Virus record (IMG/VR): IMGVR_UViG_3300044530_001128
Location: 1 to 64,000 of that record
Strand: one strand, 5' to 3'
Source: a virus
Length of the DNA stretch: 64,000 nucleotides
Shown here: in pieces, positions 19,800 through 59,472 of the stretch
Layout: every line of letters starts with the position of its first letter
Numbering within the stretch: the first letter of the stretch is position 1
Notes under the pieces: generated by a model
The model's database searches: none
What the model saw: only the letters and a program-made list of their open reading frames with translations
What the model was told of the DNA's origin: nothing
Position numbers and translations under genes: made by a program

Positions 19800-19906
19800 G
19801 GCGCACGAGACAGCTAGGACTAGGAAAAAGTCCACGCCCAAAAACGTGAACCGAACGGCCTAACCTGCTGTATGCCCGTCTTGGGCGTTTCCTCCCTAAC
19901 CTAAAC

Positions 19907-19944
19907 ACCCCCGGACCTGAGACATGGTCCGGGGGTTTTCTTTT
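19907..19944 (+). terminator. strong intrinsic terminator
   Basis: CCCCCGGACC pairs with GGTCCGGGGG around an 8-nt loop, followed by TTTTCTTTT. Ends the transcript of the duplicated protein gene. Confidence 0.92.
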
Positions 19945-19959
19945 GCAACCACTTGCAAT
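19942..19959. repeat. 18-bp palindrome copy 10 (diverged centre)
   Basis: TTTGCAACCACTTGCAAT overlaps the T-tract of the terminator; its right half is the -35 of the next promoter. Confidence 0.75.
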
Positions 19960-19982
19960 CCCCTAGATACCGTGCTTATAAT
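19953..19982 (+). promoter_or_regulatory. promoter with perfect -10
   Basis: TTGCAA (right arm of an 18-bp palindrome), 18-bp spacer, TATAAT at 19977-19982. Drives the non-coding hub and the 7-codon ORF at 20051. Confidence 0.7.
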
Positions 19983-20050
19983 TATCTCGTTCGCGGGGAT
20001 TAGCGGTACTTAGTAAAACCTACCGAACGCCAACTGATCGGAGGAACGTT

Positions 20051-20074
20051 ATGAAGTTCATCGACACCTACTAG
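20051..20074 (+). CDS. 7-codon leader peptide candidate (MKFIDTY)
   Basis: GGAGGA lies 6 bases before ATG AAG TTC ATC GAC ACC TAC TAG, downstream of the 19953 promoter. A good initiation signal for so short an ORF suggests a leader peptide. Past the TAG the same frame stays open for 38 codons to a second TAG at 20189, so amber readthrough is formally possible. Other genes in the window end normally in TAG, which argues against general recoding. Confidence 0.4.
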   Translation: MKFIDTY

Positions 20075-20182
20075 GTTTTCCTGGCGCCGTCACAGTTCGA
20101 TCGCATAATCAGACCCGTTAGGCGGATTGATCACCGCCACGAACCGCCGCCCATGGAGGGCACCTCCCCGATGATCTGGCGT

Positions 20183-20188
20183 TATACT
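20183..20188 (+). promoter_or_regulatory. possible -10 (TATACT) before structured RNA
   Basis: TATACT with no clear -35. About 7 bases downstream begins GGGGC, which pairs with GCCCC at 20222-20226 around two small hairpins (GTAC-GC-GTAC and CCGG-GAAA-CCGG). Confidence 0.35.
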
Positions 20189-20194
20189 TAGGGG

Positions 20195-20318
20195 CGTACG
20201 CGTACCGGGAAACCGGACAGAGCCCCCCTTTCAAATCTCCTCATCCGACGAATAGGCTGGCGTGTAGCTCCGGCCCGAAGCCCCCGCAGGAGCGTACCTT
20301 GCGGGGGCTTCGTTAGTT
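20195..20318 (+). ncRNA. candidate small RNA A
   Basis: From the possible start after TATACT to the terminator at 20277. Contains a GGGGC/GCCCC-closed element with two inner hairpins, one with a GAAA loop, then GGCTGG/CCGGCC, then the terminator. It could instead be part of a longer leader from the 19953 promoter. Confidence 0.4.
20277..20318 (+). terminator. intrinsic terminator
   Basis: GAAGCCCCCGCA pairs with TGCGGGGGCTTC; GTTAGTTCT follows, so the U-tract is weak but the stem is very stable. Confidence 0.8.
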
Positions 20319-20362
20319 CTAGGGCTACCCCGGACCCCCGTGAAAGCATGGAGACAAACCCC

Positions 20363-20391
20363 TTGTAATTCACATGGACGGCTGCTATATT
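20363..20391 (+). promoter_or_regulatory. strong promoter before small RNA B
   Basis: TTGTAA, 17-bp spacer, TATATT. Confidence 0.65.
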
Positions 20392-20397
20392 ATATTT

Positions 20398-20516
20398 CTG
20401 CCGCCGGGGAGCGTTACTCGCATTCCGTACCCGGGTGGCCTTGCGGGCGACGAGGGGATTGCAGTCCTGCCCGCACGGGGGCGGTACCTTAAGAGGGCCG
20501 CCCCCGTCTCTTTATT
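20398..20516 (+). ncRNA. candidate small RNA B
   Basis: About 118 nt between the promoter at 20363 and the terminator at 20475, with no plausible ORF. Internal pairings include CGGGC/GCCCG around 20446-20474. The complete promoter-RNA-terminator unit in a gene-free stretch is the main evidence. No known RNA family recognised. Confidence 0.5.
20475..20516 (+). terminator. strong intrinsic terminator
   Basis: ACGGGGGCGG pairs with CCGCCCCCGT, followed by CTCTTTATTA. Confidence 0.88.
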
Positions 20517-20525
20517 ACCCCCCAT

Positions 20526-20554
20526 TTGCTAACCTGATGGCGAGCCCTTATACT
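20526..20554 (+). promoter_or_regulatory. promoter of the first replication-region operon
   Basis: TTGCTA, 17-bp spacer, TATACT. The predicted start point falls inside the palindrome at 20555, so a bound protein would occlude it. Confidence 0.65.
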
Positions 20555-20582: not shown

Positions 20583-21767
20583 ATGGCCCTTCATCCCCGA
20601 GAATTACGAGCCCTAGAGAAACAACGCCGCTTCATCGATATGTATTCGGCGGGGACCACCAGTTTTCGTCAAAGGCTCCAAGCAATAGCGGACGGACCCG
20701 CCAGAGTACCGGAGCAACCCAACGCAGCGATAGTGGAAGAGGCAGCGGCTAGCAGCGCTGCCGCAGCGTTTCTGCGTCGAGATAGGGAGCCGCGCAGCAT
20801 AGCCGCTGCGGTAAGCAACGTGGTGACTCCTACGCCCGCACCATCCACTACTTTCCAAGGCATCATCGATAGCCTACGAGAGGCAGCGCCGCGTGCCATG
20901 GCTTGGGCGGACTCCCTGCGCGCACTCCGTAGAAGTCAAACAGTAAATCTACAAAGGCCGATGGTCCGCCGTGATGGAGGCAACGACTTCGTCTTCACGC
21001 GCCATGGGCTCAGACGTGGAGACATGTCCATGGGGTTCGAAGTCGTGAACGTGGTACATGACAGTGGAGAAATGCGTCTTGTTGATCTGCAACAGGCTGG
21101 CGTGTATGACCACGGAGACGCCCTAGCAGAAGCCCGGGTGCGCTTAAACCGTCAGATGGCGGATGCCGAGGAAGAAATCTTTAGAGCGTCCACCACCCCT
21201 TCGGGGGCACGTCGGCAGGCAGAGTTACACGCCGCAGTCATGCGAGATACGATGACCGAGGGCATCGTGGAGGAGCGCACCATCGCGCGTCTATATACAA
21301 CGTCATTCATTGCCGATATAGCCGATTTGCGCGAAGTGTCGTACGACACGCTAACGCGGGCTAAGCATGAACTGCCGGGGATCAAAAGCTTGAGCCCGCT
21401 GATAAGGAATGTCGAGGCATGTTACCTAGCGGAAGACCATTCCGTGGCGTTCGGCGTCGGTATAAACCATCCGGTCACTGACAGTTGGCGAGAGGATATT
21501 CGCCAGTACAAGGCGGCTCTGCTCTCGGTGTGCATCTACTTCGCTAAGCGCGGGGTGCCGTGCAAGGTCACCGACCCCGCCACCGGATCGAGCAAGGTAT
21601 CTTTGCAATCGTTTGCAAACGATCTGCAGGGACTCACGCCTGTGCAGCCGCGTGTTATCGCGGGGGCCAAGCAAAAGACGACCACTCCGCGCTTGTCATC
21701 CACTAGCCGTCGTCGTACACTTCTCTTGCTTAAATCTAACCGGAGCAACCGTAATGGCACTGATTAA
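20583..21767 (+). CDS. unrecognised protein, first gene of the replication region
   Basis: 394 residues from ATG 20583; a TTG at 20556 is in frame but inside the palindrome and ahead of the likely transcript start. No family recognised. The first ~120 residues are Ala/Arg-rich and helical; the middle has VFTRHGLRRGDMSMGFEVVN and a helical DALAEARVRLNRQMADAEEE stretch. The C-terminal ~25 residues are Ser/Thr/Arg/Lys-rich (RLSSTSRRRTLLLL), resembling the basic tails of other proteins here. The end overlaps the AAA ATPase start by 14 bases. An in-frame palindrome lies at 21601. Confidence 0.75.
   Translation: MALHPRELRALEKQRRFIDMYSAGTTSFRQRLQAIADGPARVPEQPNAAIVEEAAASSAAAAFLRRDREPRSIAAAVSNVVTPTPAPSTTFQGIIDSLREAAPRAMAWADSLRALRRSQTVNLQRPMVRRDGGNDFVFTRHGLRRGDMSMGFEVVNVVHDSGEMRLVDLQQAGVYDHGDALAEARVRLNRQMADAEEEIFRASTTPSGARRQAELHAAVMRDTMTEGIVEERTIARLYTTSFIADIADLREVSYDTLTRAKHELPGIKSLSPLIRNVEACYLAEDHSVAFGVGINHPVTDSWREDIRQYKAALLSVCIYFAKRGVPCKVTDPATGSSKVSLQSFANDLQGLTPVQPRVIAGAKQKTTTPRLSSTSRRRTLLLLKSNRSNRNGTD
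21601..21618. repeat. 18-bp palindrome copy 12
   Basis: TTTGCAATCGTTTGCAAA near the 3' end of the preceding gene, read as L-Q-S-F-A-N. Confidence 0.9.
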
Positions 21768-47890: not shown

Positions 47891-48110
47891 TCGCGCCGAT
47901 CCCCACGTTGTTATTGTCGACAGCGCCCTGCGCCCAGACGTTGTCTGGGTGCATTTCCACGAGATCGAGTATCGCGCCTTGTCCATCTTGCTACATGATG
48001 GCAACGGCCGGGGCATCTTCGAAGGCCCCCGCCATGATGCCAGCGAATGGCTAAAGTCCAACGGCTACACCGTAGCCTTGAACGGAGGATGGATACGTGC
48101 AAGAGCGTGA
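47844..48110 (+). CDS. unrecognised small protein
   Basis: 88 residues from GTG 47844, supported by GGAGGA 9 bases upstream. Contains HVVIVDSALRPDVVWVHFHE. Its end overlaps the next GTG gene, which also has GGAGGA. Function unknown. Confidence 0.6.
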   Translation: MQFRSLRNSNVGLAFNRADPHVVIVDSALRPDVVWVHFHEIEYRALSILLHDGNGRGIFEGPRHDASEWLKSNGYTVALNGGWIRARA

Positions 48111-48600
48111 CGTAGTCGCGTACATTTCCGCTCTCCTGTTGCTGGACAACGCAATGGGGGAACACTTCAAACGTCCCGAGGAGGTAGCGTACATAGGGCG
48201 TTATCGCGGGGCGCAGGGGGTCGCCGTTGGGCATATCGTGATGAAGCATGCCCACGGTCGAAAAGCCCAGCACCGGCTAACCCGCATGGCCGTTGACCTC
48301 ATGCACCGAGTGAAGGCTATTCCCGAGGCGCAGGAGTATTCGACGGGCGACCGTTGGATGGGCATCGTGCACTTTCTCACCGTGCTGGAGCATGACAAGT
48401 ACCGCGTCAACGTGGACAGCCCACCGCTGTTGGCACTGCAGGACTACATTCGCGCCGCGCAGGCGATGATGCGCGACAGCGTCACGAAGAAGATCAACCC
48501 GGAGCATGTTCCGGTGTGCGGCCTGTCCATGTCCTACCTCCGATACTACCATTCGGAGAAATGTTTTCGGGCTATTGACACGGAGGCTTTAGCCCCTTAA
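48097..48600 (+). CDS. unrecognised protein
   Basis: 167 residues from GTG 48097 with GGAGGA upstream. Helical; MKHAHGRKAQHRLTRMAVDL and a VNVDSPPLLALQDYIRAAQA stretch. The last codons contain the TTGACA -35 of the promoter for the structured RNA downstream. Confidence 0.65.
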   Translation: MQERDVVAYISALLLLDNAMGEHFKRPEEVAYIGRYRGAQGVAVGHIVMKHAHGRKAQHRLTRMAVDLMHRVKAIPEAQEYSTGDRWMGIVHFLTVLEHDKYRVNVDSPPLLALQDYIRAAQAMMRDSVTKKINPEHVPVCGLSMSYLRYYHSEKCFRAIDTEALAP

Positions 48601-48603
48601 TAT
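48575..48603 (+). promoter_or_regulatory. strong promoter of structured RNA
   Basis: Consensus TTGACA, 17-bp spacer, TAATAT. Predicted start near 48610. Confidence 0.7.
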
Positions 48604-48609
48604 CATCAA

Positions 48610-48762
48610 TTCGATTTCGGGATCACGCTTGGTTGCTCCGGCAGTGATCCCGGCCGGGAGGGGAGCGCACTCCGATGGATGCTGGTCCTGACTTGTAAGC
48701 ATTGATCCTCCCGGCGACCTTGAAAGCCCCGCATCATTAGCTTGGTGCGGGGCTTTCTTTAT
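48610..48762 (+). ncRNA. candidate structured small RNA with its own promoter and terminator
   Basis: About 150 nt with no ORF. Helix 1: CGGGATCAC (48618) with GTGATCCCG (48644). Helix 2: GCCGGGAGG (48653) with CCTCCCGGC (48707), enclosing GGAG-CGCA-CTCC and an ATGCT/AGCAT arm, so a multibranch element. A 15-bp terminator stem closes the unit. The nine-base perfect helices and the clean promoter-terminator pair support a real RNA. Not a standard tRNA: no T-loop GTTCRA and no 7-base anticodon loop. No known family recognised. Confidence 0.68.
48722..48761 (+). terminator. intrinsic terminator of the structured RNA
   Basis: GAAAGCCCCGC pairs with GCGGGGCTTTC, extended inward by four more pairs; TTTAT follows. 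Confidence 0.9.
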
Positions 48763-48796: not shown

Positions 48797-48988
48797 ATGA
48801 TCTACTTTGTAGTAGCGTTCTTCTTGGTTATGCTATGGACTACCTTCAAGGCGGGGCTACAAGCCGCGTTGCTGTTGATATTCGGCGTAGGAATGATATA
48901 CTTGGCTATCACCATCAGGTATCCTCATGCCTTCGGTAAGGACCTACGTGGAGCAGTGTCATCTGTCAGCTATTCCTATAAAGCCTGA
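48797..48988 (+). CDS. small membrane protein
   Basis: 63 residues, two adjoining hydrophobic segments (MIYFVVAFFLVMLWTTF; LLLIFGVGMIYLAITI). Overlaps the prim-pol-like gene by 62 bases in another frame. Function unknown. Confidence 0.55.
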   Translation: MIYFVVAFFLVMLWTTFKAGLQAALLLIFGVGMIYLAITIRYPHAFGKDLRGAVSSVSYSYKA

Positions 48989-49794: not shown

Positions 49795-50187
49795 ATGCGG
49801 GACATTGTACTCATTTATGCGGGCTCTTTGTGCGGCCACGCGCTTACCACGGTAGCTACGCCCGAAGAGGCTGGCCGGGTATTCGTGCTAGGCCCCGAGC
49901 CGCTCGACATGATCGTCATTGACGAGGTCGGGGACACCCGGGATATCGTTGAGGTTCTCAACCGTCTCCCCAAGGTTCCTGAATTGTCCCGCATGCCCGA
50001 GATCGATGATTACCCGGCATGCATCGAGGACCCCGACCAGCACGAGCGCATCGCGGCTAAGAAGGAGCGAATGCACCATGACGCTCGACCTTACCACCAC
50101 AGTCTTCGTATTCGCGGGCATGGCGGCATTAGTGCTGTACGTTTCCGCAACTCTCAAATCTCACAGAAGAGACGTAAAGGGCGTTAA
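49795..50187 (+). CDS. unrecognised protein
   Basis: 130 residues. The first ~85 are alpha/beta and acidic (RDIVLIYAGSLCGHALTTVA, PLDMIVIDEVGDTRDIVEVL); the last ~35 overlap the next gene in another frame and are basic. The upstream spacer CCGGGGACCCCG can form a tiny hairpin before the ATG. Function unknown. Confidence 0.6.
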   Translation: MRDIVLIYAGSLCGHALTTVATPEEAGRVFVLGPEPLDMIVIDEVGDTRDIVEVLNRLPKVPELSRMPEIDDYPACIEDPDQHERIAAKKERMHHDARPYHHSLRIRGHGGISAVRFRNSQISQKRRKGR

Positions 50188-50527
50188 GGACGACGTAGAC
50201 GAACTGTCGCACAATTATCTGATGATGGTGCATACAGTCAACGACATTGCCAACAGGAGGACAAGGAATGCGCAACGCACGGAAGAGACGGGTGGCACGA
50301 GCCCAGCGCAAGGTGAGGGCTTCGGCAGCGAGTACCGCGAAACAAGCGCGGATCGCAGAGCGCGTCAAGCGCGCGAACGGCGCAAGAAAAAGCGCGATCA
50401 AGAAGTCGCCAGCGATCCGCAAGCCCCGAGCCAAGAAGGTCGAGGTACAGTAAAGGTAAAGCGTTACCGGCGCGCTATGCGTGTAGTAACGACCAAAACC
50501 AATAGGAGGGTGCCCGATGTCCCTTGA
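50078..50527 (+). CDS. single-pass membrane protein with charged tail
   Basis: 149 residues from ATG 50078 with AAGGAGCG upstream. One N-terminal hydrophobic segment (VFVFAGMAALVLYVSATL) then a coiled-coil-like polar region (VKGVKDDVDELSHNYLMMVH). The second half is highly charged because it overlaps the basic ORF at 50268; the true C-terminus may therefore be under dual constraint. Function unknown. Confidence 0.5.
   Translation: MTLDLTTTVFVFAGMAALVLYVSATLKSHRRDVKGVKDDVDELSHNYLMMVHTVNDIANRRTRNAQRTEETGGTSPAQGEGFGSEYRETSADRRARQARERRKKKRDQEVASDPQAPSQEGRGTVKVKRYRRAMRVVTTKTNRRVPDVP
50268..50453 (+). CDS. small highly basic protein nested out of frame
   Basis: 61 residues, about 40% Lys/Arg plus Ala (RKRRVARAQRKVRASAASTA, KSAIKKSPAIRKPRAKK), like short histone H1/protamine-type DNA-binding proteins. 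AGGAGGACAAGGA directly upstream of ATG 50268 is a very good ribosome-binding site, which supports translation despite lying wholly inside the 50078 frame. Confidence 0.5.
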   Translation: MRNARKRRVARAQRKVRASAASTAKQARIAERVKRANGARKSAIKKSPAIRKPRAKKVEVQ

Positions 50528-51626: not shown

Positions 51627-51680
51627 TCGTTTTGCAATACATTGCAAATCGCCGGGCCAGCAAACCCCCGGGTAGGAGCA
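51615..51680 (+). promoter_or_regulatory. promoter with 5' hairpin leader
   Basis: TTGCCC, 17-bp spacer, TACATT (51638-51643, inside palindrome copy 31), then after 8 nt a CCGGG/CCCGG hairpin with a CCAGCA-containing loop, then TAGGAGCAA. Confidence 0.6.
51631..51648. repeat. 18-bp palindrome copy 31 overlapping a -10
   Basis: TTTGCAATACATTGCAAA; the usual CG centre is changed so that TACATT serves as -10. Confidence 0.78.
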
Positions 51681-51684
51681 ATCA

Positions 51685-53884: not shown

Positions 53885-54076
53885 ATGCTCACTCGTGCGC
53901 GGGTTTCCGCCATATATGAAATAGCTGTCATCCCCTCACCTAGCGGGGATGACATGCTGGATGGCCTCATATACGCGTGTCGCGAGTACCTTCGCAATGA
54001 AGGTATCCGCGTAGCCGTACAAGACAAGGAGCAACCGAATGATAAGTCCGTTCGACCCACGACACCGGCCGGATGA
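53885..54076 (+). CDS. unrecognised small protein
   Basis: 63 residues. MLTRARVSAIYEIAVIPSPS at the N-terminus; the last 13 residues overlap the next gene in another frame. Not recognised. Confidence 0.5.
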   Translation: MLTRARVSAIYEIAVIPSPSGDDMLDGLIYACREYLRNEGIRVAVQDKEQPNDKSVRPTTPAG

Positions 54077-54509: not shown

Positions 54510-54556
54510 CCGGGTACCTTACTCGTGCCGGGGCTTTTCCCGGGAATAGGAGCAAT
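54493..54556 (+). promoter_or_regulatory. palindrome-borne promoter with 5' hairpin leader
   Basis: TTGCAA, 16-bp spacer, TACCTT, 7 nt, CCGGG-GCTTTT-CCCGG hairpin, AATAGGAGCAA. Near-identical in layout to 58630. Confidence 0.65.
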
Positions 54557-54559
54557 GCG

Positions 54560-54952
54560 ATGTCAAGTCTCGAAAGCATGGGCAGCACGGAGTTCTCTGG
54601 CGAGGACGATGAGGGCCTTCGTCCCGACCCCGTCCCGACGTGGTGGTCGGTCGCCGTCTTCATGGTGGATCGCGCCTACGGCGGACCCGAAGAGGGCGGC
54701 TGGTGGTACGACTACGGCTACCCGGTCAATGACGCGGAAATGGCCCCGCTCCTGCGCGTGTTCGGAGCAGCGAACGGCGGCGAGGAAGCCGCCCGCACCT
54801 ACCGCAACGAGTTGCAGGCCAAGCTCGACGCCGAAATGAATGTGGGCCGGGTCGACATAGGCAGCGTCCTTAGCGACGGTGTCTATCGGGCGGTAGTCAC
54901 CGACGACGACTACCCCAAGGCGTACCCCTCCGAACGCCCGCGTTTCGAGTAG
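54560..54952 (+). CDS. unrecognised acidic protein
   Basis: 130 residues from ATG 54560 after a hairpin leader. Very acidic; Trp/Tyr-rich motif VPTWWSVAVFMVDRAYGGPE and GWWYDYGYPVNDAEMA. Acidic early proteins like this often bind host factors, but nothing specific is recognised. Confidence 0.65.
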   Translation: MSSLESMGSTEFSGEDDEGLRPDPVPTWWSVAVFMVDRAYGGPEEGGWWYDYGYPVNDAEMAPLLRVFGAANGGEEAARTYRNELQAKLDAEMNVGRVDIGSVLSDGVYRAVVTDDDYPKAYPSERPRFE

Positions 54953-54961
54953 GGGCCGAGC

Positions 54962-55345
54962 ATGAACACGCGATACAAGCTCGACCGCGCCATCGAGAAC
55001 CTGCGAGACGTGTACTCGTCCGCCAAGCACTTTGGCCCGACGCACGCTAAGTTGCTTGATGACGTTGCCGCCATCCGCACCAAGTACCTCGCCCAAGCCC
55101 CCCGCTGGGCTTGGGGGGAATTCCGGGGCTACGAGCGGGCACTGTCCGACGGCCTGTACCAGTACAGCCTCGTGTTCGGGGGCTTCTTCGAGGACAGGAC
55201 GTTCTACTCGACACACAGTAGCCGCCCGGACTATTACGGGACACACGGCATCGAACCCAGCGAATGGGCCGACGACGGACGAGTTACGAAGAAAGGGCAC
55301 TACTGGATCATCCGGGGAGAGCCCAAGCCCTTCTTCGTCAAGTAG
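54962..55345 (+). CDS. unrecognised protein
   Basis: 127 residues, 9 bases downstream. RYKLDRAIENLRDVYSSAKH helix, then aromatic-rich beta segment (RALSDGLYQYSLVFGGFFED). Followed by a terminator. Not recognised. Confidence 0.65.
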   Translation: MNTRYKLDRAIENLRDVYSSAKHFGPTHAKLLDDVAAIRTKYLAQAPRWAWGEFRGYERALSDGLYQYSLVFGGFFEDRTFYSTHSSRPDYYGTHGIEPSEWADDGRVTKKGHYWIIRGEPKPFFVK

Positions 55346-55352
55346 TTACTGC

Positions 55353-55389
55353 CCCCGACTGCGTAGCACAGGCCGCAGTCGGGGTTTCC
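55353..55389 (+). terminator. intrinsic terminator
   Basis: CCCCGACTGCG pairs with CGCAGTCGGGG, followed by TTTCCC. Confidence 0.72.
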
Positions 55390-55415
55390 CTCAACGCCTG
55401 ATGCAGGAGGTCGAT

Positions 55416-55649
55416 ATGGCATTGAAGTCAACCGGGGCCAAGCCCGCTGCTACCAAGGCTGGCGCAGCCGGGTTCGAAGCGGAGTACACGCTCTCTCGCG
55501 AAACCAAGGGCACGTTCGTGTTCGAACGCGATGGCCTCACGAAGGAGACTCGGTTCTCCGGATCGAACAGCATCTATCTCCAGAAGGCCGACTATCCGGA
55601 CGGCCCGCCGAAGAACCGGATGCGCGTGATCCACGAATTCATCGACTGA
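55416..55649 (+). CDS. small protein with MALK tag
   Basis: 77 residues from ATG 55416 with CAGGAGG upstream. Begins MALKSTGAKPAATKAGAAG, the same style of N-terminal tag as the replication proteins; the remainder is beta-rich (EYTLSRETKGTFVFERDG). Not recognised. Confidence 0.65.
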   Translation: MALKSTGAKPAATKAGAAGFEAEYTLSRETKGTFVFERDGLTKETRFSGSNSIYLQKADYPDGPPKNRMRVIHEFID

Positions 55650-55664
55650 TCGTCGATCACCGGC

Positions 55665-55694
55665 TAGCCCCGCTATCGAAAGGTAGCGGGGCTA
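55665..55694 (+). terminator. hairpin between genes
   Basis: TAGCCCCGCTA pairs with TAGCGGGGCTA; no U-tract, so termination is uncertain. Confidence 0.5.
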
Positions 55695-55717
55695 CAGCCA
55701 GTAAGGAGGGACAGTAT

Positions 55718-55909
55718 ATGCGCTACAGGGTGGAAGTTCTCGTGAAGGTGTACGACATCAAGCGAGGCGAGACGGAAGTTTGGCAGGCCCTGCACCCCAC
55801 AGGAGGTGAGCCCTATTCGTGGGGCACCCGGCGCGAAGCCGAGACTATGATGAACATGTGCTACCCGAGCCACAAGGACAAGGCCCGGGTCGTGGAGATA
55901 GCGCAATAG
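55718..55909 (+). CDS. unrecognised small protein
   Basis: 63 residues with AAGGAGGGA upstream. RYRVEVLVKVYDIKRGETEV then a short helix; small alpha/beta. Not recognised. Confidence 0.6.
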   Translation: MRYRVEVLVKVYDIKRGETEVWQALHPTGGEPYSWGTRREAETMMNMCYPSHKDKARVVEIAQ

Positions 55910-55913
55910 GCAT

Positions 55914-55931
55914 TTTGCAATCGCGTGCAAA
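55914..55931. repeat. 18-bp palindrome copy 33
   Basis: TTTGCAATCGCGTGCAAA, intergenic, 50 bp upstream of the TATAAT at 55982. Confidence 0.83.
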
Positions 55932-55981
55932 ACAGCCCCGAGACAAGTAACCCGACCTCGCGGCGCTGATGGGGATCGGGC

Positions 55982-56022
55982 TATAATGCCCCTGCCGGGA
56001 ACGTCCCCGGGATAGGAGCAAC
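55982..56022 (+). promoter_or_regulatory. perfect -10 with 5' hairpin leader
   Basis: TATAAT (flanked by GGGC/GCCC), 7 nt, CCGGG-AACGTC-CCCGG hairpin, GATAGGAGCAA. No clear -35. Confidence 0.6.
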
Positions 56023-56028
56023 CAGTTA

Positions 56029-56259
56029 ATGATCGATGACGAACTGCGGCACGACCTCACCGACAAGTTGGACGACGAGCAAATTGCTCTGATGAATGAC
56101 GCCCTTGCGCGTCCGTGCATCGTTGCCATCTTGGAGGCGCTGGTAGGTGCCGCCCTGCATCCCCACCAAGGGCAGTCCGGGGGCGAAGGGCAGATCAGCT
56201 TCAATCTCCAAATCGGGGACGACGTGGTGTCCGTCACGCTCGACCATATCTCGACCTAA
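56029..56259 (+). CDS. unrecognised small acidic protein
   Basis: 76 residues. Acidic helical N-terminus (DDELRHDLTDKLDDEQIALM) and a beta C-terminus (ISFNLQIGDDVVSVTLDHI). Not recognised. Confidence 0.62.
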   Translation: MIDDELRHDLTDKLDDEQIALMNDALARPCIVAILEALVGAALHPHQGQSGGEGQISFNLQIGDDVVSVTLDHIST

Positions 56260-56273
56260 GAAGGAGCAACCCA

Positions 56274-56552
56274 ATGTCAACGCCAACCAGCCCCGAGAAC
56301 CTGCAGCGCATCAACGCGTATTTCGAGGCGCAGTCAGAGTTCTTCGGCATGCTCGCCGGACGATGGGCCGATGAGCGCGAGTACGAGGACATCGCGGACT
56401 ACCAGAAGGTACTCCAGCGGGACGCGCCCGAGGGCTTCACGATCACCGGCATGGTGAAGCGCCCGTTCGGGTTCCAGTTCACCATCGGCACGGATGCCGT
56501 GTACGCGATCAAGTGCACGTCGCGCACCGTCTCGTGGTCGCGGGTGCGCTAG
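56274..56552 (+). CDS. unrecognised small protein
   Basis: 92 residues from ATG 56274 (AAGGAGCAA upstream). NLQRINAYFEAQSEFFGMLA helix then beta strands (GFQFTIGTDAVYAIKCTSR). Not recognised. Confidence 0.62.
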   Translation: MSTPTSPENLQRINAYFEAQSEFFGMLAGRWADEREYEDIADYQKVLQRDAPEGFTITGMVKRPFGFQFTIGTDAVYAIKCTSRTVSWSRVR

Positions 56553-56560
56553 ACAGTATC

Positions 56561-56634
56561 GCGGCCCTTTTCCCGATGGAGGGGGCCGCGCTATACTCCA
56601 AGCCCGGGGCCAGCACCCCGCACACAACGGAGCA
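56561..56634 (+). promoter_or_regulatory. hairpin, -10 and 5' hairpin leader
   Basis: GCGGCCC/GGGCCGC hairpin (56561-56589), then TATACT (56592), 7 nt, CGGGG-CCAGCA-CCCCG hairpin, and CGGAGCAA. Confidence 0.55.
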
Positions 56635-56639
56635 ATGTC

Positions 56640-56888
56640 ATGTCTTTCCCGGTCGTCTACCTGCACCATGAAACCCTCGATAAGCACGAGGGCGGGGCCA
56701 TCCATGTCTACAAGTGCATGAGCCCCCTCACCGACTACCAGACGGTATGGAGTTACCGGATCACCTGCATCGGCTCCCACGGCGAGACGTACTCGATGAA
56801 CGAGTTCTGCGCGCATATGTACGGGTCGGTGACGGAAGCCGAAGCGGCTGCGATGAAGTACGCCCGCAACCACGCAACCTCGATATAG
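56640..56888 (+). CDS. unrecognised small protein
   Basis: 82 residues. SFPVVYLHHETLDKHEGGAI, then Cys residues at YKCMSP, RITCIG and NEFCAH; could bind metal. Not recognised. Confidence 0.62.
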   Translation: MSFPVVYLHHETLDKHEGGAIHVYKCMSPLTDYQTVWSYRITCIGSHGETYSMNEFCAHMYGSVTEAEAAAMKYARNHATSI

Positions 56889-56898
56889 GGGCGATGCG

Positions 56899-57204
56899 AT
56901 GGTAACGATCAAGAAGGAACTCGTCTCCTACGCCGAGTTCCCCGAGTTCGCGCTCAGCGCGTGCAACGGGCAGACGGTGTTGAATCACATCAACAACGGA
57001 AGTCTCTCCAAGTTGTACTGGTCGGACTGCGCCGTGATGGGCCTCGGCGGCTCGACCTTCACGGACGAGAACGAGTTCAACGGGTGGCTTGGGGCCACCC
57101 TGCGGGCGCATGTCGAAGAGCCCGACGCCGGGGCGTCCGAGTTCGTCATCCTCGACCCTGCCAAGCAGATGGTCACCATTCTCACCATCGACAACGAGGA
57201 GTAA
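56899..57204 (+). CDS. unrecognised acidic protein
   Basis: 101 residues, 10 bases after the previous stop. Acidic alpha/beta (VTIKKELVSYAEFPEFALSA, ASEFVILDPAKQMVTILTID). Not recognised. Confidence 0.62.
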   Translation: MVTIKKELVSYAEFPEFALSACNGQTVLNHINNGSLSKLYWSDCAVMGLGGSTFTDENEFNGWLGATLRAHVEEPDAGASEFVILDPAKQMVTILTIDNEE

Positions 57205-57211
57205 TCCGGGG

Positions 57212-57248
57212 TAAACTCTTCCTGCGGGCCAGCACCCGCTTATAGGAG
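57212..57248 (+). promoter_or_regulatory. -10 with 5' hairpin leader
   Basis: TAAACT, 6 nt, GCGGG-CCAGCA-CCCGC hairpin, TATAGGAGCAA. No clear -35. Confidence 0.5.
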
Positions 57249-57255
57249 CAATGCA

Positions 57256-57618
57256 ATGGCACAAGGTATCGAGTTCACGTTCACGAACGCCGACGACGAG
57301 GAAGAGGTCGTCACCCTCCCCTCCAAGTGGTGCATCTGCGGCGGGTGCAATGGAGACGGTACGTCTTCCGCGTACCTCGGGGCGATCACCATGTCTGATC
57401 GCGAGCCCGGGGGCTCGTGGGAAGACCCGGACGAATTTCGGGACTACATGTCCGGGGCCTACGACCGCGAGTGCGAGCGCTGCATCGGCACCGGCAAAGT
57501 CCGCGTCGTTGACGAGGAGTGCTGCAATCCGGTACACCTCAAGGCGTACAACGACCACCTCGAAGAAGAGCGCGACTACGAGCGCATGTGCGAAGCCGAG
57601 CGGAGGGCCGGGGCATGA
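57256..57618 (+). CDS. acidic protein with DnaJ-like zinc motifs
   Basis: 120 residues. CICGGCNGDG (about residue 26) and CERCIGTGKV (about 73) are paired CxxCxGxG-type motifs like half of a DnaJ zinc finger; a further Cys pair (EECCNP) follows. The rest is acidic. A metal-binding, protein-interaction role is inferred. ATGA overlap with the next gene. Confidence 0.65.
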   Translation: MAQGIEFTFTNADDEEEVVTLPSKWCICGGCNGDGTSSAYLGAITMSDREPGGSWEDPDEFRDYMSGAYDRECERCIGTGKVRVVDEECCNPVHLKAYNDHLEEERDYERMCEAERRAGA

Positions 57619-57845
57619 GCATCGACCTCAAGCCCGCGCAGGGCTCTCCCGGATGGGAGGTACTTAAGGATAAGTGCCGCGCCGCCGTCGAGCGCAACGG
57701 CGTGGAGGGGGACGCGGAGGATGCGGACAACCTCTACGATGAAGTCTACACGTCGGGCTTCGACGCGCTCCACGACTTGGGCGTTGACGACTGGACTGCC
57801 GGGGAGGTGGCCGCCGAGCTAGCGCGGGACATGGCCCAGCCCTAG
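57615..57845 (+). CDS. unrecognised small acidic protein
   Basis: 76 residues from ATG 57615 (ATGA overlap). Helical and acidic (GDAEDADNLYDEVYTSGFDA, AGEVAAELARDM). Followed by a strong terminator. Confidence 0.6.
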   Translation: MSIDLKPAQGSPGWEVLKDKCRAAVERNGVEGDAEDADNLYDEVYTSGFDALHDLGVDDWTAGEVAAELARDMAQP

Positions 57846-57856
57846 AATAGACACGC

Positions 57857-57900
57857 AATACCCCGTATGTCCGGAATGGCATACGGGGTATTATTCTTTT
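57857..57900 (+). terminator. strong intrinsic terminator (module copy 1)
   Basis: AATACCCCGTATG pairs with CATACGGGGTATT, then ATTCTTTT. Related in sequence to the terminator at 59397. Confidence 0.9.
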
Positions 57901-57926
57901 GCGGGAACGGTCCCGCGAGCAGGAGC
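57889..57926 (+). promoter_or_regulatory. possible -10 in terminator tail with 5' hairpin leader
   Basis: TATTAT at the terminator's 3' edge, 6 nt, GCGGGA-ACGG-TCCCGC hairpin, CAGGAGCAA. No clear -35. Confidence 0.4.
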
Positions 57927-57932
57927 AATGTA

Positions 57933-58202
57933 ATGATCCTCTACCGCGATTACTTTGAAATGAAGCGCATCCTTGCGCCCCTCTTCAACACCGTCGAAGA
58001 AGACCTCTATCTCGATGGGACTGATGTGGTGCGCACGTCCGACGAAGAGGGCAAGACCATCGCGCGTCTCGACGTTGTCGGCACGGGCAAGGTTCGTGTC
58101 TCGTTCATCCTCAACTACAATGAAGACCCCAACCGTCCGGCCGTGGTGATCGACGTGCCGGGGGCCGACTACGAAGCGCACGAAGGACCCAGGAGGCACT
58201 GA
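57933..58202 (+). CDS. unrecognised small protein
   Basis: 89 residues from ATG 57933. ILYRDYFEMKRILAPLFNTV helix, then beta (RLDVVGTGKVRVSFILNYNE). Ends by TGATG overlap. Not recognised. Confidence 0.62.
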   Translation: MILYRDYFEMKRILAPLFNTVEEDLYLDGTDVVRTSDEEGKTIARLDVVGTGKVRVSFILNYNEDPNRPAVVIDVPGADYEAHEGPRRH

Positions 58203-58591
58203 TGGCCGAGCCCACGTTCGCTGCGACGTTCAACAACACAGTGGACTGTCGCAGGTCCCCGATGCGTGTCTGGTCGCAACTCTACGCGGTCAATGCAGAT
58301 GGAGGATTTCGTATCCCGCAGTACATCAACCTGCCGAACAATGTGCAGGTCCATCGCGACAAGGCGGGGCTCGATGATCCCATGACTGCGTTGCGGGGAG
58401 CAGCCCGCAACATCCTTTTGTGGAACCCCGCCGTACGCGAGTACATAGACTACACCCACGAGGTTGAAGCTATGTTTCACCTCATGCTCTGCCAACAAGA
58501 GGGCGAGTACAAGAACCAGCATATGCTGGAGGTGATCGGCCGCTCTTACGGTCGCCATCTGCAGCAGGTGTTCCTGCGCGTCTACTACTGA
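58202..58591 (+). CDS. unrecognised protein
   Basis: 129 residues (TGATG start). RRSPMRVWSQLYAVNADGGF, then a helical C-terminus with HEVEAMFHLMLCQQEGEYKN. Not recognised. Confidence 0.62.
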   Translation: MAEPTFAATFNNTVDCRRSPMRVWSQLYAVNADGGFRIPQYINLPNNVQVHRDKAGLDDPMTALRGAARNILLWNPAVREYIDYTHEVEAMFHLMLCQQEGEYKNQHMLEVIGRSYGRHLQQVFLRVYY

Positions 58592-58628
58592 AAAACCCAA
58601 TGAAATCAAGGAGTTAGCAACTCTCCGT

Positions 58629-58646
58629 TTTGCAACCGTGTGCAAA
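58629..58646. repeat. 18-bp palindrome copy 34
   Basis: TTTGCAACCGTGTGCAAA; its left arm is the -35 of the 58630 promoter. Confidence 0.85.
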
Positions 58647-58690
58647 CGTCGTACATTACTCGTGCCGGGACCGTCCCCGGGAATAGGAGC
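58630..58690 (+). promoter_or_regulatory. palindrome-borne promoter with 5' hairpin leader
   Basis: TTGCAA, 16-bp spacer, TACATT, 7 nt, CCGGG-ACCGTC-CCCGG hairpin, GAATAGGAGCAAAG. Confidence 0.68.
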
Positions 58691-58695
58691 AAAGC

Positions 58696-58932
58696 ATGTT
58701 TAATCAGGAGTTCGGTACCCACAAGACGCTGTGCCTCACGCCCAGCGGGAAGTTGGGCATCCGGTTCGACCACCTCGCTGCGGCTGTCGAGTATGTGCAC
58801 GCCCGCAACGCCGCCAATCAGTGGAACGTGGTCCGCTGGTTCTCCCCGTCCAAAGCCAGCATGTCGGCCACGCCGATGCTGGAGTTCACCGCTCGCGCGC
58901 CCGAAGACATCGCACTCGTTGCACGGAGGTAG
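58696..58932 (+). CDS. unrecognised small protein
   Basis: 78 residues after the hairpin leader. GIRFDHLAAAVEYVHARNAA helix; basic. Not recognised. Confidence 0.62.
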   Translation: MFNQEFGTHKTLCLTPSGKLGIRFDHLAAAVEYVHARNAANQWNVVRWFSPSKASMSATPMLEFTARAPEDIALVARR

Positions 58933-58934
58933 CC

Positions 58935-59159
58935 ATGGCCGACTACTACTCAACCCGTAAGGATGGCGTCGAGTTCTTGAAGAACGGACGCTCCCACGAA
59001 CGCGTGTGGCGTAAGCAAGGCATGTCCTGCCGCGTCTACGAAGCGCACTGTCGCGCCGTCCGGGACGTGCAGTTCCGCCGTGTCAGGGAGAACCCCTATC
59101 CTCCCGGCCGTCGCCATGACACCTACGCGGCTACCATCGCCGCCAGCAAGGAGGGCTAG
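58935..59159 (+). CDS. unrecognised small basic protein
   Basis: 74 residues from ATG 58935 (CGGAGG upstream). Basic (GRSHERVWRKQGMSCRVYEA, RAVRDVQFRRVRENPY), possibly nucleic acid binding. Not recognised. Confidence 0.6.
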   Translation: MADYYSTRKDGVEFLKNGRSHERVWRKQGMSCRVYEAHCRAVRDVQFRRVRENPYPPGRRHDTYAATIAASKEG

Positions 59160-59162
59160 GCC

Positions 59163-59390
59163 ATGCAGTTCCGTGTCTCCCTCGTAAAAACCAAAGATGG
59201 CCGGGGCACCTTCGCCCTTGTCGATGTAGCATCGTCGGGGGGCTCCTACCGAGGCGCAGGAGTTACCCGGACCTACCACACCGCGAGCCAGATGGAACGC
59301 GCCCGGCGCGAGGCCCGCACCGTTGCCAAGAGGTACTACGACAAGCACAAGACTGCTGTCACCGGCCCGATGCGTATCTGCGACGTGTAG
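59163..59390 (+). CDS. unrecognised small basic protein
   Basis: 75 residues, three bases after the previous stop. FRVSLVKTKDGRGTFALVDV strands then a basic helix (MERARREARTVAKRYYDKH). Followed by a strong terminator. Confidence 0.6.
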   Translation: MQFRVSLVKTKDGRGTFALVDVASSGGSYRGAGVTRTYHTASQMERARREARTVAKRYYDKHKTAVTGPMRICDV

Positions 59391-59396
59391 ACTGAT

Positions 59397-59440
59397 AATA
59401 CCCCGTATGTCCGAAAGGGCTTCCGGGGTATTATTTTTTT
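59397..59440 (+). terminator. strong intrinsic terminator (module copy 2)
   Basis: AATACCCCG pairs with CGGGGTATT, then ATTTTTTT. Same module as 57857 with changes in the loop. Confidence 0.9.
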
Positions 59441-59467
59441 GCCGGGACCAATCCCGGGAATAGGAGC
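59429..59467 (+). promoter_or_regulatory. possible -10 in terminator tail with 5' hairpin leader
   Basis: TATTAT, 7 nt, CCGGGA-CCAA-TCCCGG hairpin, AATAGGAGCA. Confidence 0.4.
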
Positions 59468-59472
59468 ATCAA

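What the first reader, a model, noticed from the sequence alone, without database searches (positions are those of the whole stretch)
48575..48762. Free-standing structured RNA gene at 48.6 kb
TTGACA-17-TAATAT is followed by about 150 nt with no ORF, two perfect 9-bp helices, an inner branched region and a 15-bp terminator. The unit is complete and isolated between two genes. The outer helix GCCGGGAGG/CCTCCCGGC looks acceptor-like, but the inside does not fold as a tRNA. It could be a regulatory sRNA, a tRNA mimic or a host-RNase decoy.
Basis: partly seen in the sequence, partly recalled or inferred. Interest (0 to 1): 0.78.

Follow-up and report, generated by a model that had tools for sequence, protein, structure and literature searches.

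The report
Phage small RNA with anti-ribosome-site loop
A bacterial virus carries a compact, self-contained small-RNA gene whose exposed loop is complementary to the ribosome-binding signal found in front of many of the virus's own genes, so it probably turns sets of viral genes down by blocking their translation; no experiment or relative has yet confirmed this.

Summary
Window 48575-48762 has a sigma-70-like promoter (TTGACA-17-TAATAT), a 35-nt hairpin (SL1), an adjoining three-way junction closed by a perfect 9-bp helix, and a 15-bp intrinsic terminator. Predicted folding is far better than shuffled sequence (z -5.2; -6.9 for the transcript). It is the only strict promoter-terminator unit of this kind in the window, and 10 shuffles gave none. 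ARAGORN finds no tRNA and Rfam no family here. No homologue was found, including in the nearest phages (Agrobacterium JP1, Rhodobacter RcTiptonus), so helix conservation could not be tested. New here: the SL1 loop GGUUGCUCC is complementary to GGAGCAA(CC), the most enriched 7-mer of this phage's own translation starts (14 of 90), and is the best such loop among about 200 + strand hairpin-loop entries. I propose a trans-acting small RNA that blocks translation of phage mRNAs, working like P1/P7 c4 RNA or alpha-r8 anti-Shine-Dalgarno RNAs but a member of neither family. Weak points: the statistics are post hoc, one antisense loop scores as high, the GGAGCAA motif also occurs in relatives without a detectable counterpart RNA, and there are no expression data. 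Another sRNA target or a cis attenuator remain the main rivals.

The parts
48575..48603 (+). sigma-70-like promoter TTGACA-17-TAATAT (10/12); overlaps the last codons and stop of the upstream ORF
48610..48762 (+). inferred ~150-nt transcript (start inferred as about 7 nt after the -10)
   Evidence: inferred from promoter and terminator positions; fold z -6.9
48618..48652 (+). stem-loop SL1, perfect 9-bp lower stem, abutting the next helix with no spacer
48631..48639 (+). proposed seed GGUUGCUCC at the top of SL1: UUGCU unpaired with probability 0.97-1.0, GG/CC closing pairs opened for 3.6 kcal/mol; complementary to GGAGCAA(CC)
48653..48715 (+). three-way junction closed by the 9-bp helix GCCGGGAGG/CCUCCCGGC, with inner hairpins 48662-48673 (4 bp, CGCA loop) and 48675-48706 (14-nt loop)
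48675..48698 (+). 7-codon ORF ATG..TAA (MDAGPDL) behind GGGAGGGGAG; possible leader peptide or chance
48722..48757 (+). intrinsic terminator, 15-bp stem, 6-nt loop, then TTTAT (-28.3 kcal/mol)
48097..48600 (+). upstream ORF, 167 aa, no PHROG match, no relative in viral contigs
48797..48988 (+). downstream ORF, 63 aa, hydrophobic, no PHROG match; 40 nt after the terminator
21742..21750 (+). proposed target site GGAGCAACC (9-nt match), 12 nt before ORF 21754 (627 aa; in the position of the JP1 AAA-ATPase gene)
54028..54036 (+). proposed target site GGAGCAACC before ORF 54039; best net pairing energy -13.1 kcal/mol
56015..56023 (+). proposed target site GGAGCAACC before ORF 56029
56263..56271 (+). 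proposed target site GGAGCAACC before ORF 56274
51675..51681 (+). proposed target site GGAGCAA before ORF 51685; net -10.6 kcal/mol

Best explanation
The element is a free-standing small-RNA gene of a phage related to Agrobacterium phage JP1 and Rhodobacter phage RcTiptonus. A sigma-70-type promoter drives a ~150-nt RNA ending at a strong intrinsic terminator (parts shown as sequence, transcription inferred). The three-way junction and the abutting SL1 stem make a rigid body that presents the SL1 loop (predicted). The loop GGUUGCUCC pairs with GGAGCAA(CC), the extended Shine-Dalgarno sequence before a set of the phage's own genes, ten of the fourteen between 51.6 and 58.7 kb, and so blocks ribosome binding and lowers their translation in trans (inferred). 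It would be an anti-Shine-Dalgarno regulator tuned to the phage's own start-site consensus, for example to switch off one set of phage genes.
For: Complete unit with folding far beyond chance. GGAGCAA is the most frequent 7-mer in 91 predicted start regions: 14 there of 19 on the + strand, 5 on the other strand. Its complement UUGCUCC occurs only 5 times on the + strand of the 64-kb window, one of them this loop. On the + strand the SL1 loop matches 15 start regions, the next best hairpin loop 6. Of 5000 permutations of the 9-mer 12 reach 14; of all window 9-mers 0.056% do. With CUCC fixed, GGUUG gives the best mean pairing energy of 320 five-mers of equal GC (12th of 1024 overall). Net energy including opening of both RNAs is <= -8 kcal/mol for 6 of 90 start regions (1.3% of random segments) and <= -5 for 19 of 90 (7% of random segments). 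At 7-mer level SL1 matches more phage start regions (14) than a typical 16S anti-SD sequence (8).
Against: No transcript data. No homologue, so no covariation. The seed was found after looking (post hoc); one other loop, on the antisense strand inside a gene near 37.9 kb, also matches 15 start regions. The median pairing energy of start regions equals that of random segments; only the strong tail differs. GGAGCAA is also common at starts in JP1 and RcTiptonus, where no UUGCUCC hairpin loop in a non-coding stretch was seen, so the motif exists for another reason. The loop is only 5 nt unless its GG/CC pairs open. GCUCC also has a possible partner, GGAGC, inside the same RNA.
Confidence: 0.42

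Rival explanations
1. Structured small-RNA gene whose partner is something else: a host mRNA or host sRNA (sponge), or a protein (Hfq or RNase decoy). The match of the SL1 loop to phage start sites is chance, helped by the general anti-Shine-Dalgarno letters CUCC.
For: The unit is complete and highly structured. The most accessible stretch is the 14-nt loop 48684-48697 (a 9-nt piece opens for 0.5 kcal/mol), which shows no enrichment at phage starts. Known phage sRNAs often act on host RNAs or Hfq (review PMC12197685).
Against: Chance gives a stretch this complementary in about 0.06% of window 9-mers and in only one distinct hairpin loop on each strand.
Confidence: 0.27
2. Cis-acting leader: promoter, structured sensor and terminator control read-through into the downstream ORFs (63-aa hydrophobic protein at 48797, primase-like protein at 48927), as in an attenuator or riboswitch, perhaps with the 7-codon ORF MDAGPDL as leader peptide.
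For: Order promoter-structure-terminator-gene; ORF 48797 begins 40 nt after the terminator and no promoter-like site lies between them. The 7-codon ORF has a good SD.
Against: No convincing antiterminator: best pairing of the upstream part with the terminator 5' arm is -10.3 kcal/mol against -28.3 for the terminator. No Rfam riboswitch or leader match beyond the terminator hairpin region at gathering level. A separate promoter-like site at 48875 could serve ORF 48927.
Confidence: 0.2
3. Ordinary 3' end of the upstream transcription unit: a transcript ending in a stable structure and terminator, with a chance promoter-like site.
For: Strong terminator directly after ORF 48097-48600; at the looser threshold promoter-like sites are no more frequent than chance (7 against 6.0).
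Against: A terminator needs no 100-nt structured body; a 10/12 promoter with 17-nt spacer sits just where needed, and no such unit arises in shuffles.
Confidence: 0.1
4. tRNA-like RNA or tRNA mimic.
Against: No tRNA by ARAGORN, no tRNA-like Rfam family at E <= 10, only two inner arms, no T-arm, no CCA.
Confidence: 0.01

Closest known systems
c4 antisense RNA of phages P1 and P7
   Same: Phage-encoded structured RNA; complementary sequences held in loops; blocks translation around a ribosome-binding site of a phage mRNA (reviewed in PMC12197685).
   Different: c4 targets ant; here one loop matches the start-site consensus of many phage genes. No c4 family match appears in Rfam at E <= 10.
alpha-r8 family sRNAs (MmgR of Sinorhizobium, SisA-D of Caulobacter; Rfam RF00519)
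   Same: Alphaproteobacterial anti-Shine-Dalgarno sRNAs: SisA-D share a 10-mer with an anti-SD signature through which SisA probably represses many targets (PMC12559287).
   Different: The 48.6-kb RNA does not match RF00519. Its seed is UUGCUCC, matching phage SDs, not the UUUCCUCCC of alpha-r8. A true alpha-r8 match lies elsewhere in this window, at 19867-19950.
Trans-acting phage sRNAs PreS (lambda) and VpdS (VP882)
   Same: Phage-encoded trans-acting sRNAs that act during phage development (PMC12197685).
   Different: They depend on Hfq; PreS acts on host dnaN and VpdS on phage and host mRNAs. Hfq use is untested here and the predicted targets are phage start sites.

Membership tests
Independent sRNA gene (general kind) | own promoter, intrinsic terminator, no long ORF, stable structure | tested here: met
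Independent sRNA gene (general kind) | discrete transcript with a primary 5' end | not testable with these tools
   no RNA data
Independent sRNA gene (general kind) | structure conserved by compensatory changes | tested here: inconclusive
   no homologue found
Antisense RNA acting on ribosome-binding sites (works like c4) | accessible loop complementary to target start sites beyond chance | tested here: met
   post hoc
c4 antisense RNA family (P1/P7) | match to its Rfam family | tested here: not met
   no such match among all 4227 families at E <= 10
alpha-r8 / suhB (RF00519) | covariance-model match above the gathering score | tested here: not met
   only 19867-19950 matches, not 48575-48762
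tRNA or tRNA-like RNA | cloverleaf with T-arm, or detection by ARAGORN or Rfam | tested here: not met
Riboswitch or attenuator leader | alternative antiterminator pairing | tested here: not met
   best competing duplex -10.3 against terminator -28.3 kcal/mol
Riboswitch or attenuator leader | condition-dependent read-through into the downstream gene | not testable with these tools
   needs Term-seq or a reporter

The most novel reading that the evidence does not exclude
The phage's genes share a distinctive extended Shine-Dalgarno (GGAGCAA), and the phage encodes one RNA whose loop is its complement: a single-RNA switch for a whole regulon of phage start sites. The same phage also carries an alpha-r8-type RNA with the host-type anti-SD motif UUUCCUCCC, which matches almost none of its own starts (1 of 90 at 7-mer level), so that one RNA could press on host-type start sites while the other times the phage's own.
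Probability: 0.15. Interest if true: 0.8.

Novelty: new variant of a known kind. Interest (0 to 1): 0.5.

Why it matters
Most described phage sRNAs act on one or a few mRNAs or on host regulators. An RNA whose loop is the complement of the phage's own start-site consensus would be a simple way to throttle many phage genes at once, and would give a reason to look for RNA counterparts wherever a phage group shares an unusual extended Shine-Dalgarno. It can be tested with two plasmids in a laboratory strain.

Tried and rejected
Homology: blastn in phage and plasmid collections, exact core pattern, degenerate outer-helix pattern (80 stretches, none supported by the covariance model), conserved-loop pattern (13 hits, none with the flanking helix of SL1; two of them look like other terminators), and a covariance model from the single sequence on the window, 100 loci and 20 whole records: nothing convincing. 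No relatives were found in IMG/VR for the upstream ORF, ORF 44947 or the RecA-like protein used alone; genes between 46.4 and 55 kb have no meaningful counterpart in the nearest records. SL1 as a DNA operator: rejected, since its half-sites GGGATCAC and GTGATCCC occur nowhere else in the window. Antitermination: no strong competitor. tRNA mimic: rejected. Counterpart RNA in JP1 and RcTiptonus: UUGCUCC there was not seen in a non-coding hairpin loop. A search for an exact copy of the alpha-r8-like stretch in 84,980 genomes gave nothing, so the host was not pinned down that way.

Full report
What is there. The window is 64 kb of a 65,185-base IMG/VR virus record. Its replication genes are syntenic with Agrobacterium phage JP1 and Rhodobacter phage RcTiptonus (RecA-like protein 45-46% identical; DNA polymerase about 41%; order DnaB, Pol, RecA, resolvases). 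Those genomes are 94-97 kb. The record starts with tail genes and I recognised no head or packaging genes in it, so it is probably a fragment, and possible targets in the missing part were not seen.

The observation. RNAfold gives -88.9 kcal/mol for the stretch (z -5.2, no shuffle of 200 as good) and z -6.9 for the transcript from 48610. In the predicted structure SL1 (48618-48652) abuts the outer helix of a three-way junction (48653-48715), which is followed by a 6-nt linker and a 15-bp terminator (48722-48757). A strict promoter followed by a strong terminator occurs at one place in the window and not in ten one-strand shuffles, although the promoter alone would not be significant. The promoter overlaps the end of the upstream ORF, and a 7-codon ORF with a good SD lies inside the junction.

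Identity. ARAGORN finds no tRNA. Rfam finds nothing at gathering thresholds here, and at E <= 10 only sub-threshold matches that lie on or run through the terminator hairpin. Sequence, pattern and covariance-model searches found no homologue. The whole region 46.4-55 kb is specific to this record among its nearest relatives.

Mechanism. I asked whether any part of the RNA is complementary to start regions of the phage's own genes. Gene starts came from a simple codon-usage and SD caller that I trained on the long ORFs of the window, so individual starts are provisional. The one outstanding stretch is the SL1 loop: UUGCUCC is the complement of GGAGCAA, which is the most frequent 7-mer in these start regions, 14 of 91, or 14 of the 90 used later. 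Four starts carry the full 9-nt complement GGAGCAACC (21754, 54039, 56029, 56274). Ten of the 14 sites lie between 51.6 and 58.7 kb, in the block of small genes 3 kb downstream of the RNA.

How strong is it. Opening the loop costs 3.6-6.2 kcal/mol. Net pairing energies, including the opening of the target, reach -13.1 kcal/mol; 6 of 90 start regions are at or below -8 against 1.3% of random segments, and 19 of 90 at or below -5 against 7%. The loop scores 15 start regions; the next + strand hairpin loop scores 6; one antisense loop near 37.9 kb inside a gene also scores 15. Of all window 9-mers 0.056% reach 14. With the general anti-SD letters CUCC held fixed, the natural five letters before them rank first of 320 with equal GC and 12th of all 1024. 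Against this, median pairing energies do not differ from random segments, and the test was devised after seeing the sequence.

Relatives. GGAGCAA is also the leading GGAG-type start motif in the JP1 stretch L119 (9 of 50) and the RcTiptonus stretch L120 (6 of 37), but not in more distant loci. In those two phages UUGCUCC was not seen in a non-coding hairpin loop. So the start-site motif belongs to the group, and the RNA, if it acts as proposed, exploits a motif that exists for another reason.

Comparison. The proposed mode of action resembles c4 RNA of P1/P7, where complementary sequences in loops block the RBS of ant (PMC12197685), and the alpha-r8 anti-SD RNAs of alphaproteobacteria (PMC12559287). 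It is not a member of either by Rfam. The same window has a real alpha-r8 match at 19867-19950 (47.4 bits against a gathering score of 41, E 1.5e-8), absent from 20 related records, whose conserved anti-SD stretch matches only 1 of the phage's own 90 starts at 7-mer level.

Verdict. A real, well-formed RNA gene candidate. Trans-acting anti-Shine-Dalgarno control of the phage's own genes is the most likely single mechanism (about 0.4). A different sRNA target (0.27) and a cis attenuator (0.2) remain open.

Noticed in passing
window 19867-19950: Rfam RF00519 (suhB/MmgR, alpha-r8 sRNA family) match in a phage, 47.4 bits with the conserved anti-SD stretch GGGCGUUUCCUCCCUA intact and its own terminator; absent from 20 related records and no full-length match in 50,697 phage records.
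   Followed up: partly
window 19950-20550: Non-coding stretch with further promoter-like sites and structured units ending in strong G+C hairpins (about 20190-20322, z -3.3; 20393-20514, z -2.6): possibly a small cluster of RNA genes next to the alpha-r8 match.
   Followed up: partly
whole window, e.g. 3415, 25530, 42528, 49767, 54494: Dispersed palindrome TTTGCAANCGNTTGCAAA, 32 sites matching TGCANNCGNNTGCA, many just upstream of genes; JP1 (TTGCAAACGTTTGCAA) and RcTiptonus (TTGCAATCGATTGCAA) have their own versions. Looks like an operator or stoperator-like repeat of this phage group.
   Followed up: partly
window 54526-59468: Five copies of a leader hairpin plus SD, TGCCGGGACCNNCCCCGGGAATAGGAGCA, before small genes (family D9).
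   Followed up: no
L119 18442-18840 (JP1 76441-76839): About 350-nt non-coding stretch of Agrobacterium phage JP1 predicted to be closed by a ~19-bp helix with many inner hairpins (z -2.8), no Rfam match; an undescribed large structured RNA candidate.
   Followed up: partly
L084 6120-6430 (RcTiptonus 50071-50381): Non-coding stretch of RcTiptonus predicted to fold with a ~20-bp closing helix, a further hairpin and a terminator-like stem (z -4.0), no Rfam match; another phage RNA gene candidate.
   Followed up: partly
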